From the NCBI RefSeq assembly GCF_016863315.1, contig NZ_BOOQ01000031.1, forward strand, positions 1 to 64,000: 64,000 nt of DNA. The letters run 5' to 3'. The translations under genes were made by a program, and so were the position numbers. Shown one piece after another: positions 34,826-40,042 of this stretch. The notes beneath the pieces are model-generated. The model ran no database searches. It was not told where the DNA came from and was given only the letters and a program-made list of their open reading frames with translations. The DNA is from Planotetraspora silvatica (GTDB taxonomy: Bacteria; Actinomycetota; Actinomycetes; Streptosporangiales; Streptosporangiaceae). Numbering within the stretch: position 1 is the first letter of the stretch; each line of letters opens with the position of its first letter.

Positions 34826-35857
34826 TCAGAGGCCGTGCCGGCGATCGCCGAGCACGGCCTCGCTGACTTCGCGTTCCATCGCCGCGGAGAACGGAGCCCG
34901 GCGGTCGGCGACCGCGCGGCGCGTCTCCTCGGCGATCAGGTCGGCGTTGATCGCCGCACCGGCGCGCACACCCGCGGCGGCGGCGCCGATGACCTGATCC
35001 ATCAGGTTGGCCACGTTGCCGGCCACCCACACACCGGGCACGCTTGTGGCTCCCGTCGGGTCGGCGGCGATGTAGCTGCCGATCACATGGCCGCCCATCT
35101 CCTGGACTGTCGTCTCGAGGCCGAGACCGGTGAGCAACTCCGCCCGTGCGGTGAACCGCGGAGTCGTCGCGAGAGCCCTGCGGGCGACCACCCGGCCGCC
35201 TGCCAGCCGTACGCCGGTGAGCCTGTCGTCCTCGGCCTCCAGTCCGGTCACCTGTCCTTCCACCACGGCGATGTCGCGGGCGGCCAGTCGTTCCCGCTCG
35301 TCATCGGTGAGTGCGGGCGCCGTGTGCAGGAAGAGAGTCACGTCCTTGCTCCACTGCCGCCACAGCAGCGCCTGGTGGACCGCCAGCGGGCCGGTGGCCA
35401 GGATGCCGATCGGCTCGTCGCGCACCTCCCAGCCGTGGCAGTACGGGCAGTGCAGCACGTCGCGTCCCCACCGCTCCGCCAGCCCGGGAATCTGAGGCAG
35501 CTCGTCGACCAGACCGGTGGTCACCAGTAACCGGTCCGCAGCCACCGTCGGCCCGCCGTCGAGCACGACCAGGAAGCCTCCGGCGTCCAGGCGCTCGGCC
35601 GCCGCGACGTGGCCCGTCATGATCTCCCCGCCGTAGTCGGCCACCTCGGCGCGGCCCGCGGCCAGCAACTCGGAGGGCTGCATCCCTTCGCTGGTCAGGT
35701 AGGTGTGCACGTGGGCGGCGGGGGCGTTGCGCGGCCGTCCGCCGTCGATCACCAGCACAGAACGACGTGCCCGTGCCAGGGTCAGCGCCCCGCTGAGGCC
35801 GGCCGCTCCCCCGCCGACGACAACCACGTCATAACGCTGTACTTCTTCTGCGGTCAT
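34826..35857 (-). CDS. thioredoxin-reductase-like FAD oxidoreductase
   Basis: A 343-residue flavoprotein. The FAD-binding motif YDVVVVGGGAAGLSGALTLA, the redox motif CPYCHGWEV near residue 135 and the second FAD site VPGVWVAGNVANLMDQVIGA are seen. The NADPH-binding GxGxxx motif is weak (GILATGPLAVHQALL), as in several actinobacterial TrxR-like proteins. Length is longer than TrxB by about 25 C-terminal residues. It may reduce a small disulfide rather than thioredoxin. ATG at 35857; divergent from the ArsR-SRPBCC gene. Confidence 0.88.
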   Translation of the reverse strand: MTAEEVQRYDVVVVGGGAAGLSGALTLARARRSVLVIDGGRPRNAPAAHVHTYLTSEGMQPSELLAAGRAEVADYGGEIMTGHVAAAERLDAGGFLVVLDGGPTVAADRLLVTTGLVDELPQIPGLAERWGRDVLHCPYCHGWEVRDEPIGILATGPLAVHQALLWRQWSKDVTLFLHTAPALTDDERERLAARDIAVVEGQVTGLEAEDDRLTGVRLAGGRVVARRALATTPRFTARAELLTGLGLETTVQEMGGHVIGSYIAADPTGATSVPGVWVAGNVANLMDQVIGAAAAGVRAGAAINADLIAEETRRAVADRRAPFSAAMEREVSEAVLGDRRHGL

Positions 35858-35961
35858 GGGTTGTACCTCCGTTCGGGGAAATGGTCGGCCCTCACGGCAG
35901 CGATTGGCAAAGTTAGTTGCCGGATCGGCAATTCGACGGGACGGCGGCGCGGTTCGGAACA

Positions 35962-35991
35962 TTGACAGGTGACCATTTGGTCACCTAACTT
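35962..35991 (+). promoter_or_regulatory. promoter/operator of a leaderless ArsR transcript
   Basis: TTGACA (35962-35967) is followed after 18 bases by TAACTT (35986-35991). The perfect dyad AGGTGACCA-TT-TGGTCACCT (35967-35986) fills the spacer. The GTG start codon begins six bases after the -10 element, so transcription should start at the GTG itself. An additional TTGCCG-N3-CGGCAA dyad lies at 35917-35931. Confidence 0.65.
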
Positions 35992-35997
35992 CGTCGC

Positions 35998-36795
35998 GTG
36001 ACCGACGACGACCGAGTGTTCAAGGCGCTGGCCGACCCGACTCGAAGGCGCCTGCTCGACCGGCTGTTCGCGCGGGACGGGCGAACGCTGTCCGACCTCG
36101 AGTCCGACGTGGACATGACGAGGTTCGGCGTGATGAAGCACCTCCGGCTGCTCGAGGACGCCGGTCTCGTCATCTCACGCAAGTCCGGCCGGGAGAAGCT
36201 GCACTTCCTGAACGCGGTGCCCATCCGGCTCATCCACGACCGCTGGATCGACAAGTACACCGAGCCCCAGGTGTCGGCGCTCGTCCATCTGAAGACCGAG
36301 TTGGAGAAGACCATGACCACCACCGAGACCGGCACGACCGTGCAGGTGCATCGCGTGTACATCAAGGCGACCCCGGAGGCGATCTGGACCGCGATCGTCG
36401 ACCCGGAATGGACGCGGCGCTACGGCTACCGGGGCGTGGTCGAGTTCGACCTGCGCCCGGGCGGCGGCTTCCGATCGCTCGCCGGCGACGAGATGCCCGG
36501 CATCGACCCGGCCGACTGCCTGGTGGAGGGCGAGGTCATCGAGGTCGACCCGCCGCGCCGGCTCGTGCAGACCTGGCGTCCGACCTGGCTCGACGAGCCC
36601 GTCACGCAGCTCACGTACGAGATCGAGGAGGGCCAGGACGGCGTGTGCTCGGTCACCATCACCCACGACGTGCGGGACGCGCCGCAGACGGCGGCACAGG
36701 TCGCGGGCCAGGTCCAGAACGCGGGAGGCGGCTGGACCGAGGTGCTGAGCGACCTGAAGTCGCTGCTGGAGACCGGGTCGAGCCTCTACCGCTGA
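35998..36795 (+). CDS. ArsR regulator fused to an SRPBCC (AHSA1) domain
   Basis: A 265-residue fusion. Residues 1-95 are an ArsR winged helix (DRVFKALADPTRRRLLDRLF, then MTRFGVMKHLRLLEDAGLVI). Residues about 110-260 are an activator-of-Hsp90-ATPase-like START/SRPBCC domain (VHRVYIKATPEAIWTAIVDP, then GYRGVVEFDLRPGG and GGGWTEVLSDLKSLLETG). Such proteins bind a hydrophobic ligand in the SRPBCC cavity to control DNA binding. Cotranscription with the DHA2 exporter 54 bp downstream suggests ligand-induced efflux. GTG start, probably leaderless. Confidence 0.88.
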   Translation: MTDDDRVFKALADPTRRRLLDRLFARDGRTLSDLESDVDMTRFGVMKHLRLLEDAGLVISRKSGREKLHFLNAVPIRLIHDRWIDKYTEPQVSALVHLKTELEKTMTTTETGTTVQVHRVYIKATPEAIWTAIVDPEWTRRYGYRGVVEFDLRPGGGFRSLAGDEMPGIDPADCLVEGEVIEVDPPRRLVQTWRPTWLDEPVTQLTYEIEEGQDGVCSVTITHDVRDAPQTAAQVAGQVQNAGGGWTEVLSDLKSLLETGSSLYR

Positions 36796-36849
36796 CCGGC
36801 CGGGCACCGGGGCCGGCCCGACACCCATCGATCCTCAAGGGAGACCGAC

Positions 36850-38343
36850 GTGACCGCAGTGAACCCCGGCGCGACCTCGGCGAGTGCCGAGGACCCCGAG
36901 GCGCATCCCCGGCGGTGGTGGGTGCTCGCCCTGCTCTCCGGCCTGGCGTTCATGATCCTGCTGGACATGACCGTCGTGAACGTGGCGCTGCCACTGATCC
37001 AGGACGGCCTCGGCTTCTCCGAATCCGGCCTGACCTGGGTCGTCAGCGGCTACGTGCTCGCGGCCGGCGGACTGCTGCTGCTCGGCGGAAGGTTGGCCGA
37101 CGTCTTCGGCCGGCGGCGCCTGCTGTTGACCGGCGTGGTCGTCTTCGCGGTGTCCTCGGCCGTCTGCGGGGCCGCCGTCTCTCCGGGGATGATGATCGCC
37201 GGCCGGTTCGCCCAGGGGATCGCCGAGGCGATCGCCGCCCCCGCCTCACTCGGCCTGATCGCGCTGCTGTTCACCGATCCGAAGGAGCGGGCGAAGGCGC
37301 TGGGGATCTGGGGCGGGCTCGTGGCGCTCGGCGGGACCCTCGGCTACGTCATCTCCGGCGTCCTGACCAATCTGACGACCTGGCGCTGGATCTTCTTCAT
37401 CAATCTCCCGGTCGCCGTGGTGGTCCTCCTGATCCTGCCGCGACTGGTCGCCGAGAGCCGGATGGTGCGCGAGAAGGACCACCGGCTCGACGTCGCCGGG
37501 GCGATCACCTCGACCGCGGGTCTCGTCGCCGTCGTCTACGGCCTGCTGCAGGCGGCCGAGCACCCCTGGGGGTCCGCGGCGGTGGTGCTTCCGCTCGCCG
37601 CCGGCGGCTGCCTGCTCGCCGCGACCGTCGTCGTCGAGCGCCGCGCGAAGAATCCGCTCGTCCCGCTGGACTTCTTCGCCAACCGCACCAGGTCGGTCAT
37701 CAACGTCGTCTCCCTGTTCTTCATGGCGGCGTTCATCTCCTACACCTTCATGCTGACCTTGTTCGAGCAGCGGGTGCTGGGCTACTCCTCGCTGGTGAGC
37801 GGGCTGGCCTGGCTGCCCCTCGGGATCGCCATCGGAACCGGCATCGGCCTGGGCAGCACGCTGACTCCGCGCATCGGCGTCAGAGCGGTGACCTCCGCCG
37901 GCTTCGTCGGCGCCGGGGTCGGGCTCCTCCTGACGAGCATGATCGACATCGACGCGTCGTACCCCGGCGGGATCCTGCCGGGGATGATCGTGTTCGGGGT
38001 GTTCGCCGGCGCCACCATGCCGGCCGCGACCACCGCCGCGTTGCACGGGGTCACCGTCCAGGACTCCGGCCTGGCCTCGGGGGTGCAGAACACCATGCAG
38101 CAGGTCGGCGGTGCCCTCGGTCTCGCCGTCCTGGTGACCCTCGCGCTCCGTCACGCCGGGGACGCGATGCGGCACGGCGTGCCCCCGGAGATCGCGATGA
38201 CGGCGGGCTACGTCATGGCCTTCCGCGTCGGAGCAGCCCTGCTGGTGCTCGGCGGAGTGCTCATCCTGGCGCTCTTCGAGCGCGTGAACCCAGAACTCCG
38301 AGACCCCACATCCGAGATCACCCAAACCACCCCCCGGGCGTGA
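36850..38343 (+). CDS. DHA2-family MFS drug exporter
   Basis: A 497-residue transporter with about 14 helices. Motif C-like segments and the DHA2 signature LDMTVVNVALPLIQDGLGFS, then GLTWVVSGYVLAAGGLLLLG and GGRLADVFGRRRLLL (motif A) place it in the EmrB/QacA group. It exports drugs or metabolites with proton antiport. It is downstream of the ArsR-SRPBCC regulator. Its TGA stop codon lies inside the first unit of the 53-bp repeat array. Confidence 0.92.
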   Translation: MTAVNPGATSASAEDPEAHPRRWWVLALLSGLAFMILLDMTVVNVALPLIQDGLGFSESGLTWVVSGYVLAAGGLLLLGGRLADVFGRRRLLLTGVVVFAVSSAVCGAAVSPGMMIAGRFAQGIAEAIAAPASLGLIALLFTDPKERAKALGIWGGLVALGGTLGYVISGVLTNLTTWRWIFFINLPVAVVVLLILPRLVAESRMVREKDHRLDVAGAITSTAGLVAVVYGLLQAAEHPWGSAAVVLPLAAGGCLLAATVVVERRAKNPLVPLDFFANRTRSVINVVSLFFMAAFISYTFMLTLFEQRVLGYSSLVSGLAWLPLGIAIGTGIGLGSTLTPRIGVRAVTSAGFVGAGVGLLLTSMIDIDASYPGGILPGMIVFGVFAGATMPAATTAALHGVTVQDSGLASGVQNTMQQVGGALGLAVLVTLALRHAGDAMRHGVPPEIAMTAGYVMAFRVGAALLVLGGVLILALFERVNPELRDPTSEITQTTPRA

Positions 38344-38813
38344 TCATGCACAAGTTCGCGATCACGGCCACCGACCTGCCCACCCTTGGTTGGTGATCAT
38401 GCACAGGCTCGGCGAAACCCCCACCGACCCGCACCTTCCTCCCGCGTGATCATGCACGGGTTCGCGGAAAGCCTCATTGAGCTGGGCGTTCTCAGTTCGT
38501 GATCATGCACAGATTCGCATTCACCCCTGCCGACCTGCGCTTAAGGGCTACGCGATCATGCATTCACCCATCATCACCCGCCCACTGAACGCCCCTTCCA
38601 AGGCCGGTACTCCGTTCAAGGAACGCGCCCCTCAACGACCACTCGCATGATCACGCAGGGTGTTTTCCCTGATCCGCCCACCTCTCCGCGAATCTGCGCA
38701 TGATCACGAATCGGGTACGCCCAGGCCGGCAGGCCTTTCACCGAATCCCTGCATGATCACTCCGGGGGAAGGCGCAGGTGGGAGCACTTGATCACGAACC
38801 TGTGCATGATCAC
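38340..38813. repeat. mirror-image array of 53-bp units
   Basis: The core GTGATCATGCAC occurs at 38340, 38393, 38446 and 38499, with a decayed copy at 38552. The reverse complement occurs at 38643, 38696, 38749 and 38802. Spacing is exactly 53 bp within each arm, and the first four left cores mirror the four right cores exactly about 38576.5. About 20 bp of each unit (through GGTTCGC) is well conserved and the remaining 33 bp only weakly. The array fills the whole space between the MFS and glycerate kinase genes and supplies the stop codons of both. No protein gene is present inside. Confidence 0.92.
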
Positions 38814-40042
38814 GGCAGGTGGGTGGCGGCGATGGTGTGGGCGATGCGTTCGAGCAGTGGTCCCGCCTCGGCGATGCAACGCCGGACGTCGGGCTCGATG
38901 TCGGTCAGGGCGTAGACCGCCTCGATCCCCGCCGCCTGTAGCTCGGCGTCGCCGATGGACCGCCGCCCGCACACGGCCACGACCGGCACCCCATGCTTGG
39001 CGGCCGCCGCCGCGACGCCCACGGGGGCCTTGCCTCGCAGCGACTGTTCGTCGATCGATCCCTCGCCCGTGACGACCAGGCGTGCGCCTTCGACCTGGCG
39101 GTCGAAGTCCAGCAACTCGAGCAGGTACCCGATCCCGGGCCGGACCTCCGCCCGCAGGAAGGCCAGCGCGGCGAAACCCACGCCCCCGGCCGCGCCCGCG
39201 CCCGGGCGGCCCGCGACCCCCATGCTCCGCACCACGCCGTCGTGCTCGATCGACCCCGTCAGGCCGTGCGTGTGAACCGCGACGGCGGCGAGCCTGGCCA
39301 GGCCCTTCTCCAGCACGGCCACGTCCTCCGGTGACGCGCCCTTCTGCGGCCCGTAGACCGCGGCGGCGCCGTACGGCCCGAGCAGGGGATTGTCCACATC
39401 GCTCGCGACGACGAACTCCACTCCGCCGACCCCGGTTCCGCCCGCTGCCGGGTCACCCGGAGCCGGCTGTACGAGCGCCGACGCGTCGATCCGGTCGAGC
39501 CGCCGCAACGCGGCGCCGCCGAAGGGCAACTCCTCGCCGTCCTCGTCCAGCAGCCGCGCGCCCAGCGCCTGCACCATGCCCGCTCCCCCGTCGGTGCAGG
39601 CGCTGCCGCCCAGCCCGAGGACGATCCTCGTCGCGCCGTGCCGTACGGCATGGGCGATGAGCTCCCCGGTCCCGTAGCTGGTCGCGGTGAGCGGGGCGGG
39701 CGCACCGGGCAGCCTCCGCAGCCCTGACGCCTCGGCGAGCTCGATCACCGCCACCCTGCCACCGACCCGGGGGGACGCCGCACCTTCTCCGGGCACGTCA
39801 TGGGCCTCGTCGCGCACGGCGTACGACGCGAGGATCGGCTCCCCCGTGGGGCCGGTCACCTCGACCTCGACCCGGGTGTAGCCGGAGGCCACCACGGCGT
39901 CCACCGTTCCTTCGCCGCCGTCGGCGACCGGCAGCCCGACCACCGGCACGGGCCCCAGCCCCGCCGCCACATGGGCGACCACCTGGGGCGAGGTCAGCGA
40001 CCCCCTGAACTTGTCCGGCGCGATGACGACGTGGCCCTTCAT
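38810..40042 (-). CDS. glxK: glycerate kinase
   Basis: A 410-residue class II-type glycerate kinase (GlxK/GarK family). It begins HVVIAPDKFRGSLTSPQVVA; GVDLAVADGGEGTVDAV-like motifs appear as PVADGGEGTVDAVV, then RIVLGLGGSACTDGGAGM near residue 140 and RLVVTGEGSIDEQSLRGKAP near 330. It phosphorylates D-glycerate, the last step from glyoxylate to phosphoglycerate. Last gene of the leftward glyoxylate-assimilation operon. Its stop codon is formed by the outermost right repeat unit of the array. Confidence 0.94.
   Translation of the reverse strand: MKGHVVIAPDKFRGSLTSPQVVAHVAAGLGPVPVVGLPVADGGEGTVDAVVASGYTRVEVEVTGPTGEPILASYAVRDEAHDVPGEGAASPRVGGRVAVIELAEASGLRRLPGAPAPLTATSYGTGELIAHAVRHGATRIVLGLGGSACTDGGAGMVQALGARLLDEDGEELPFGGAALRRLDRIDASALVQPAPGDPAAGGTGVGGVEFVVASDVDNPLLGPYGAAAVYGPQKGASPEDVAVLEKGLARLAAVAVHTHGLTGSIEHDGVVRSMGVAGRPGAGAAGGVGFAALAFLRAEVRPGIGYLLELLDFDRQVEGARLVVTGEGSIDEQSLRGKAPVGVAAAAAKHGVPVVAVCGRRSIGDAELQAAGIEAVYALTDIEPDVRRCIAEAGPLLERIAHTIAATHLP

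What the first reader, a model, noticed from the sequence alone, without database searches (positions are those of the whole stretch)
38340..38813. Stop-to-stop mirror array with exact 53-bp phasing
Nine copies of GTGATCATGCAC (four exact on the left plus one decayed copy, and four on the right in reverse complement) are spaced exactly 53 bp apart in each arm. The eight outer cores mirror each other exactly about position 38576.5. At about 10.5-10.6 bp per turn, 53 bp is five helical turns, so all cores face the same side of the DNA. The outermost cores provide the TGA stop codons of both converging genes. About 20 bp per unit is conserved and 33 bp varies. It could be a multi-site protein-binding platform (nucleoid, segregation or domain boundary), a giant cruciform, or an unusual bidirectional terminator. 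I know of no described element with this geometry.
Basis: seen in the sequence. Interest (0 to 1): 0.85.

Follow-up and report, generated by a model that had tools for sequence, protein, structure and literature searches.

The report
Genome-wide phased DNA-site arrays
A short DNA word is repeated in strictly 53-base steps at what extrapolates to a few hundred gaps between genes in one soil bacterium's genome, probably as a landing platform for a protein that has not been identified.

Summary
The array is real: nine cores (five exact) at a 53-bp pitch in two inward-facing arms. It is not unique. The exact 12-mer occurs 698 times in this genome (reversed control 0, 0.37 expected), 536 times with a second core exactly 53 bp on. 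The genus is probably Planotetraspora. All four congeneric genomes searched and one of another genus carry such arrays; isolated pairs in a further genus lie 52-55 bp apart, 25 of 25. Inverted pairs with the same first ten bases occur in four other families.

The pitch is under selection: 46 of 48 orthologous intervals are unchanged although linkers differ by 18%. RNA pairing is not supported. One species carries different bases after the foot, also at an orthologous array.

Best reading: arrays of sites for a sequence-specific DNA-binding protein, not identified. ArgR is a candidate for the foot only. Ten of 41 arms supply a stop codon; mirroring follows from equal pitch. No binding or function is shown.

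The parts
38340..38351 (+). left arm, core 1 (GTGATCATGCAC exact); its TGA is the stop codon of the MFS gene
38393..38404 (+). left arm, core 2 (exact)
38446..38457 (+). left arm, core 3 (exact)
38499..38510 (+). left arm, core 4 (exact)
38552..38563 (+). left arm, terminal core (2 mismatches; lacks the TTCG extension)
38372..38379 (+). second conserved block (B, CGACCTGC) of left unit 1
38425..38432 (+). block B of left unit 2 (CGACCCGC)
38478..38485 (+). block B of left unit 3 (TGAGCTGG)
38531..38538 (+). block B of left unit 4 (CGACCTGC)
38564..38642 (.). centre between the arms (79 bp); best perfect stem 5 bp
38643..38654 (-). right arm, terminal core (2 mismatches)
38696..38707 (-). right arm, core 3 from the outside (1 mismatch)
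38749..38760 (-). right arm, core 2 (1 mismatch)
38802..38813 (-). right arm, core 1 (exact); its TGA is the stop of the glycerate kinase gene
38774..38781 (-). block B of right unit 1 (CCACCTGC)
38721..38728 (-). block B of right unit 2 (CGGCCTGG)
38668..38675 (-). block B of right unit 3 (GGATCAGG)
36850..38343 (+). flanking gene: MFS transporter (context, not part of the element)
38810..40042 (-). flanking gene: glycerate kinase (context)

Best explanation
The array is one member of a genome-wide family of mostly intergenic arrays of binding sites for a sequence-specific DNA-binding protein that is not identified. Each 53-bp unit carries a foot (GTGATCATGCA), an extension that differs between species (here CAGGTTCG) and, about three helical turns on, a second block (GACCTGC). 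A pitch of five turns puts every site on the same face of the DNA, so I infer that the protein assembles cooperatively along an arm, and that two arms, which face inward in 38 of 38 two-arm loci, are bridged into one nucleoprotein structure. The arrays lie mostly in convergent and co-directional gaps, seldom in divergent ones; I infer a job in chromosome architecture or in separating neighbouring transcription units. Shown from sequence: the site family, the fixed pitch and selection on it, lack of a replicated RNA pairing signal, the different extension in one species. Inferred: the protein, cooperativity, bridging, and the boundary function (about 0.35 on its own).
For: Copy number: 698 exact cores against 0 reversed; 536 pairs at exactly 53 bp. 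Successive same-orientation distances of GTGATCATG under 160 bp, no spacing imposed: 53 in 119 of 128 (own genome, 852 kb), 52 of 59 (G203), 105 of 126 (G205), 7 of 7 (G204), 40 of 76 (G058, another genus, with 18 more at 52). In genus g30, with distances of 38-68 allowed, 25 of 25 pairs (in 4 of 15 genomes) lie at 52-55: 16 at 53, 7 at 54, one each at 52 and 55 (recounted); in the 20 fetched as loci each pair is a single interval of exact feet. Selection on pitch: 46 of 48 orthologous intervals unchanged between G000 and G203, 13 of 15 arms with equal core number; 2 length changes against about 42 expected from the gap/substitution ratio of array-free intergenic DNA. Feet (positions 0-9): 4 changes in 450 base comparisons; linkers 107 in 585. 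In G000 units of one arm are nearly as different (identity 0.504-0.538) as units of different loci (0.487-0.505; column expectation 0.497), so the pitch is not a trace of fresh duplication there. DNA, not RNA: in G000 the 22 strongest covarying pairs lie within 5 bp of each other; the best helix of G000 is not seen in G058 or G205; in G432 the halves of 43 palindromes match no more than when shuffled (231 of 301 against 225, p 0.15). Trans factor: G205 has CAGAAGTTCG (113 units) where G000, G202, G203 and G204 have CACAGGTTCG; in the whole G205 genome 745 phased GTGATCATG pairs but 11 with the CAC form; the same at an orthologous array beside a ThiI-family gene. Inward order in 38 of 38 two-arm loci.
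Against: No reader was shown; the ten neighbouring proteins scanned are ordinary, and comparison of 212 flanking proteins gave no telling shared family. Nothing here measures binding. In distant relatives the pitch is not fixed: same-direction spacings 32-57 in G432 and 37-45 in G373, apart from longer gaps. Divergent gaps do occur: 3 of 26 loci in G000, 1 of 32 in G058, with one more G058 locus inside a called gene. In G058 units of one arm are clearly alike (0.626 adjacent, 0.650 non-adjacent, against 0.467-0.470), so duplication is recent there, and one unit type recurs at several loci. One helix (positions 46-50 with 68-72) exceeds shuffles in G000 (319 against 292, p 0.0005, chosen as best of 1953) and weakly in G203 (p 0.05, orthologous sites); one column of the G432 palindromes also does (40 of 43 against 36.5, p 0.008). 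Linkers change faster (18%) than four-fold sites (6.7%), which simple binding does not explain. The length-change test uses arms found with steps of 51-55 bp only, so larger changes would be missed, and control alignments with over 35% mismatch or over 150 bp length difference were dropped uncounted.
Confidence: 0.66

Rival explanations
1. A REP/BIME-like spreading repeat: the feet are the recognition ends of a small mobile or gene-converting element that settles in harmless gaps downstream of genes; pitch and protein binding would be secondary.
For: Placement as for REPs (mostly convergent and co-directional; compare PMC3733652, passages seen). Foot with lineage-specific inner sequence and sporadic distribution. 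A repeated unit type at several G058 loci. Feet give stop codons, as PMC3733652 reports for GTAG repeats.
Against: No Y1_Tnp match in 6 of 8 genomes searched (G000, G202, G203, G204, G058, G075). The monomer is not palindromic over its length and shows no GTAG or CGTC tag by eye. Arrays are inherited (11 of 11 testable loci shared with G203) with strong selection on feet and pitch.
Confidence: 0.2
2. A protein-roadblock, bidirectional terminator: bound sites stop RNA polymerase coming from either gene, perhaps helped by Rho on the C-rich RNA made just before the first foot.
For: Convergent enrichment 11 of 26 (background 14-17%); first core from -35 to 43 bp after the stop in G000; C-rich outer flank, 55% C in 60 arms against 41% after 178 stops of array-free convergent genes; inward orientation.
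Against: In co-directional gaps single arms do not clearly follow the gene: 18 of 30 match, 12 do not (tallied; some are orthologous pairs). 15 of 26 G000 loci are not convergent. At the ThiI-family locus a hairpin stands between the arms. Arms stand without the gene they would serve.
Confidence: 0.15
3. A form of the best explanation with a named reader: the foot is an ARG-box-like site of the arginine repressor ArgR, here recruited as an array-forming architectural protein.
For: Table 1 of PMC5839063 (passage seen) lists CTCTCCGTGATCATGCACCC, which holds the exact core, among ARG boxes in fragments of Streptomyces coelicolor shifted by ArgR. ArgR is hexameric in E. coli (same paper). The stretch -3 to 10 matches the palindrome TGCATGATCATGCA, which I wrote by eye from the core, at 11-13 of 14 bases in 158 of 177 G000 cores. 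ArgR is found once in 28 of 30 genomes searched, so a class-wide foot would be natural.
Against: ArgR is as present in genomes without feet (for instance G388, G361, G347), single-copy everywhere found, and absent by this search from G017 and G018, which have feet. The putative recognition segment VTQATLSRD is the same in the 26 ArgR sequences read, G205 included, so ArgR does not explain the different extension. No box within 2 mismatches lies in the 28 argR loci. The one listed box showed no change of transcription (footnote).
Confidence: 0.1
4. An RNA element or intrinsic hairpin terminator made by pairing of left and right arms.
For: Arms are 76-81% complementary in the window; a G204 locus is a 54-bp near-palindrome; weak helix excess in G000.
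Against: Complementarity largely follows from the shared consensus; the helix is not replicated in G058 or G205; halves independent in G432; 39 of 80 loci have one arm and no exact inverted foot within 400 bp; no Rfam match.
Confidence: 0.04
5. A local tandem-slippage product without function.
For: Units are in tandem; some arms hold near-identical units (max 0.90 in G000, 1.00 in G058); unit number differs between species.
Against: Diverged units with fixed pitch, feet conserved between species, same pitch in isolated pairs of another genus.
Confidence: 0.02

Closest known systems
REP / BIME elements (GTAG- and CGTC-tagged palindromes; PMC3733652, abstract and passages seen)
   Same: Many copies, mostly between convergent and co-directional genes, close to stop codons or supplying them, often as inverted pairs, lineage-specific stems.
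   Different: Here the unit is not palindromic over its length, the constant part is about 11 bp, arrays keep a 53-bp pitch, halves do not covary in G432, and no Y1_Tnp match is found in six of eight genomes.
ARG boxes of the arginine repressor (PMC5839063, passages seen)
   Same: One listed ARG box from a shifted fragment holds the exact 12-bp core.
   Different: ARG boxes there are single or two contiguous 20-bp boxes, listed with their distance to start codons; here phased arrays at 53 bp with a second block and a species-specific extension, mostly away from promoters.
Dispersed sites of chromosome-organising proteins (SlmA, Noc, MatP, ParB; recalled, no call)
   Same: Short sequence-specific sites spread over a chromosome and read by one protein.
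   Different: As recalled, those are single sites or small groups; here 4-5 phased sites per arm, often two arms, at what extrapolates to about 260 loci per genome (26 loci in 852 kb).
Protein-bound terminator arrays such as the Sal boxes of rDNA (recalled, no call)
   Same: Directional repeats just after a transcription unit.
   Different: No clear orientation rule in co-directional gaps; scattered over ordinary genes.
MIRU repeats of mycobacteria (recalled; the search listed no paper on them)
   Same: As recalled, intergenic tandem units of similar length touching stop codons.
   Different: Not compared by sequence.

Membership tests
REP/BIME | unit is itself an imperfect palindrome with an unpaired GTAG or CGTC tag | tested here: not met
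   unit consensus GTGATCATGCACAGgTTCGg...GACCTGC shows no such tag, judged by eye; no covarying stem replicated
REP/BIME | cognate RAYT (Y1_Tnp) transposase in the genome | tested here: not met
   0 matches in G000, G202, G203, G204, G058, G075; present in G205 (4) and G065 (10). Not needed in every REP genome, so this lowers but does not exclude
REP/BIME | stem pairing kept by covariation, sign of RNA function | tested here: not met
   halves of 43 palindromes in G432 independent in total, one column of ten excepted; best G000 helix not seen in G058 or G205
REP/BIME | placed mostly between convergent or co-directional genes | tested here: met
   23 of 26 loci in G000, 31 of 32 intergenic loci in G058
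ArgR / ARG box | core resembles a box bound by ArgR | tested here: met
   exact core inside one box of Table 1 of PMC5839063; near-palindrome around the foot
ArgR / ARG box | ArgR changes with the extension or with presence of feet | tested here: not met
   ArgR in 28 of 30 genomes whatever their feet; recognition segment the same in G205
multi-site protein-binding platform | site spacing fixed near whole helical turns and selected | tested here: met
   for Planotetraspora and g30, looser in G058; not in G432, G373
multi-site protein-binding platform | a protein that binds the sites | not testable with these tools
   no binding assay; no candidate from neighbours; ArgR only by resemblance
intrinsic terminator | RNA hairpin formed by the element | tested here: not met
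   39 of 80 loci one-armed with no exact inverted foot within 400 bp; no replicated covariation
CRISPR array | near-identical repeats with unique spacers at few loci beside cas genes | tested here: not met
   many short arrays, repeats diverged, inverted arms; cas genes were not searched for

The most novel reading that the evidence does not exclude
A chromosome-wide address system of actinomycetes: a constant foot read across the class by one protein family, next to an extension read by a fast-changing part of it or of a partner, so that a genome's sites can change the second word together; in one clade it has become a positioned, nucleosome-like array with a five-turn repeat that marks gaps between transcription units.
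Probability: 0.32. Interest if true: 0.92.

Novelty: categorically new. Interest (0 to 1): 0.8.

Why it matters
If the reading holds, an actinomycete genus builds phased nucleoprotein arrays at what extrapolates to about 260 loci per genome with a protein not yet named for this role, and the sites of one species carry another recognition word. That gives a natural system for asking how a DNA-binding protein and its hundreds of sites change specificity together, and what ordered protein arrays between genes do in bacteria. The listings of the searches run here show no paper describing the arrays in the open-access library; subscription journals are mostly not covered.

Tried and rejected
Rfam search of the array: no match up to E 1. 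tRNA scan: none. RNA stem inside the unit (AGGTTCGG with CCGACCT): suggested by eye, no covariation (tested directly for positions 12-16/33-37 and 13-17/32-36 in four genomes). Best helix of G000 (46-50 with 68-72): not replicated outside orthologous sites. Arm-to-arm pairing or cruciform. Polar, gene-oriented terminator: single arms in co-directional gaps 18 with, 12 against the gene direction (tallied). Terminator hairpin at array centres: stems of 8 bp or more in 6 of 46 tested. RAYT-driven REP. Phage origin: 4 and 3 stretches of viral contigs matched the inverted and direct patterns; by eye unrelated, three of them tandem repeats. Exchange between units as cause of the fast linkers: small excess only (0.415 against 0.358 for mirror units). 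Cognate gene beside the elements: 10 proteins; 212 flanking proteins. ArgR as the whole answer. Papers holding the core letters: of 2, one (PMC5839063) proved relevant when read; of 23, 15 were listed and none looked relevant by title. Attempts to find G205 arrays orthologous to fetched G000 stretches gave nothing or one match of 1223 bp, so one orthologous locus was sought by protein.

Limits: gene calls are from a simple codon-usage caller written here, so context counts are approximate. Array finders differ. Genomes with G numbers are unnamed. Only part of each was read: G000 852 kb of 8.66 Mb, G203 382 kb, G058 400 kb, G204 400 kb, G205 379 kb. In one search, 9 of 20 G000 loci had no counterpart in the G203 stretch and 7 of 20 none in the G204 stretch. 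The class and phylum scans fix the first ten bases of the foot by pattern.
Full report
WHAT WAS CHECKED. The window holds nine cores in two arms at 38340-38813, all seven within-arm intervals being 53 bp. Five of the nine cores are exact, two differ by one base and two by two. The mirror centre follows from equal pitch. Both outermost cores hold the TGA stop of their gene: an MFS transporter on the left, a glycerate kinase on the right.

A GENOME-WIDE FAMILY. The exact 12-mer occurs 698 times in the genome (360 forward, 338 reverse), its reversed control 0 times, with 0.37 expected from base composition; 536 places have a second GTGATCATG exactly 53 bp on. In 852 kb read I found 26 loci with 41 arms, mostly of 4-5 cores. 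The genus is probably Planotetraspora, judged by glycerate kinase identity of 94, 91 and 89% to three species of that genus and 66-70% to the next six loci. In the family scan of 341 genomes the 12-mer is abundant in the five genomes of the genus (698, 652, 623, 231, 165) and in G058 of another genus (552), and at most 37 elsewhere. The order scan (345 genomes, mostly the same ones) found phased pairs in these six, G070 and G075.

ANATOMY. Aligned units give: c GTGATCATGCAC aggTTCGg, about 12 variable bases, then tGACCTGCgc, then a C-rich stretch. The last core of an arm usually lacks the TTCG part. Two-arm loci are inward-facing in 38 of 38 cases (G000 15, G203 6, G058 16, G204 1); 42 of 80 loci have no second arm of two or more cores, and 39 of these 42 have no exact inverted foot within 400 bp. 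Outward neighbouring feet do exist: one each in the G000, G058, G205 and G491 sets and five in the G432 set, two of whose loci overlap. Context in G000: 11 convergent, 12 co-directional, 3 divergent of 26; convergent pairs make up 17% of gene pairs and 14% of those with gaps of 100 bp or more (p 0.0026 and 0.00034). In G058: 9, 22, 1 of 32, and one more locus inside a called gene.

THE PITCH IS SELECTED. Successive same-orientation distances under 160 bp are 53 in 119 of 128 (G000), 52 of 59 (G203), 105 of 126 (G205), 7 of 7 (G204) and 40 of 76 (G058, 18 more at 52). Yet in G000 units have diverged to about the level expected from column composition; in G058 units of one arm are more alike (0.626). 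Between G000 and G203, 11 of 11 testable loci carry arrays of like orientation. In 15 orthologous arms 46 of 48 intervals are identical in length; feet (positions 0-9) differ at 4 of 450 base comparisons, linkers at 107 of 585. Array-free intergenic DNA has 0.152 gap openings per substitution, which would predict about 42 length changes where 2 are seen; arms were found with steps of 51-55 bp, so larger changes would escape, but 13 of 15 arms have equal core numbers. In genus g30, 25 of 25 same-direction pairs lie 52-55 bp apart when 38-68 was allowed (16 at 53), without an evident common extension. The pitch is thus a property of the element, not only of recent duplication. In G204, of 13 testable loci, 8 have chained arms of 2-3 cores (7 in the orientation of G000, 6 of these 7 with fewer cores), 2 a short inverted pair, 1 a single foot, 2 none.

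DNA RATHER THAN RNA. In G000 the strongest covarying positions lie within 5 bp of each other; in G058, with 60 units, some lie further apart. The best helix of G000 (46-50 with 68-72; 319 paired cells of 650 against 292, p 0.0005, picked from 1953) reaches p 0.05 in the orthologous G203 sites and is absent in G058 (p 0.58) and G205 (p 0.76). In G432 the two halves of 43 palindromes agree in 231 of 301 comparisons where 225 are expected after shuffling (p 0.15), though one column alone has p 0.008. Their total lengths fall at 40-46 (35), 49-53 (7) and 58 (1), a hint of helical spacing only.

A WIDER FAMILY WITH DIFFERENT SECOND WORDS. In 394 genomes of the class, inverted pairs GTGATCATGC...GCATGATCAC occur in 8: G000 29, G432 43, G491 12, G579 12, G373 6, and one each in G066, G226, G414. 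The phylum scan (396 genomes, partly the same) added none. The first ten bases are fixed by the pattern, so their constancy there is by construction; what differs is the inner part: GTTCGCCCC in G491, GCCAGCGCA in G579 of the same genus, ATCCCGCCACC in G373, rTCCTGGG in G432. Within Planotetraspora, G205 has CAGAAGTTCG (113 units); genome-wide it has 745 phased GTGATCATG pairs but 11 with the CAC form. At the gap beside a ThiI-family gene, G000, G203, G202 and G204 carry CACAGG-type sites and G205 carries CAGAAG-type sites; a central hairpin is shared by G000, G203, G202 and G205, while the G204 copy is short and lacks it. G058 and the seven other genomes looked at there have no array. This is one orthologous locus. 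Because linkers are diverged, gene conversion alone does not explain the uniform difference, and I infer a trans-acting reader.

INDEPENDENCE FROM THE GENES. In P. mira both arms of the window's array are present (identities 0.96, 0.77, 0.89 and 0.51 along one arm; 0.85, 0.83, 0.72, 0.92 along the other), but the MFS gene is absent from the fetched 9.2-kb locus and the flavoprotein gene follows. The loci of two other named species show no array there. Ten of 41 arms in G000 supply the stop codon of a called gene.

WHO READS IT. Neighbouring genes gave no candidate. ArgR occurs once in 28 of 30 genomes searched, with and without feet, and not in G017 and G018 by this search. Its recognition segment is the same in the 26 sequences I could read, G205 included. 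ArgR could at most read the constant foot; it does not explain the extension.

MECHANISM. Commitment: binding platform for an unidentified protein, cooperative along one DNA face, arms probably bridged; a job in chromosome architecture or separation of transcription units seems more likely to me than termination. The protein and the function are inference.

COMPARISON. REPs are nearest by placement (PMC3733652, abstract and passages), but tag, transposase and stem tests are not met. The listings of the paper searches showed no description of the arrays; apart from passages of PMC3733652 and PMC5839063 only listings were seen.

Noticed in passing
orthologous arms of L009-L028 and L029-L048: Array linkers differ 18% between G000 and G203, against 4.6% in array-free intergenic DNA and 6.7% at four-fold sites: fast substitution at fixed length. 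Exchange between units explains little.
   Followed up: partly
window 38784-38799 and first units of many arms: An extra GATCA about 18 bp after the core start, mostly in units 1 and 2: 10 of 60, 9 of 60, then 3 of 60, 1 of 55, 0 of 24.
   Followed up: partly
L255-L257, L260: A hairpin of about 11-13 bp stem between the two arms beside a ThiI-family gene, in G000, G203, G202 and G205, with paired changes in G205.
   Followed up: partly
L224-L226 (G017, G018): Outward pairs of feet 28 bp apart with extension CTTRTTCG, some clustered; no ArgR match in these two genomes.
   Followed up: no
G058:C1, listing: One unit type (ATGTTCCCGCACGCACCGTCC or near) recurs at several loci, and five nearly identical units stand in tandem from 450296, suggesting recent spread or amplification.
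   Followed up: no
L109 5230-5960 against window 34826-38343: P. mira lacks the MFS gene beside the array; gene gain or loss at the array edge.
   Followed up: partly
G205 and G065: Y1_Tnp-family matches (4 and 10) although absent from the other six genomes tested.
   Followed up: no
L254, IMG/VR contig IMGVR_UViG_2899449502_000002: AT-richer contig (37% GC) with a short tandem repeat around CATGATCAC; looks unrelated.
   Followed up: no
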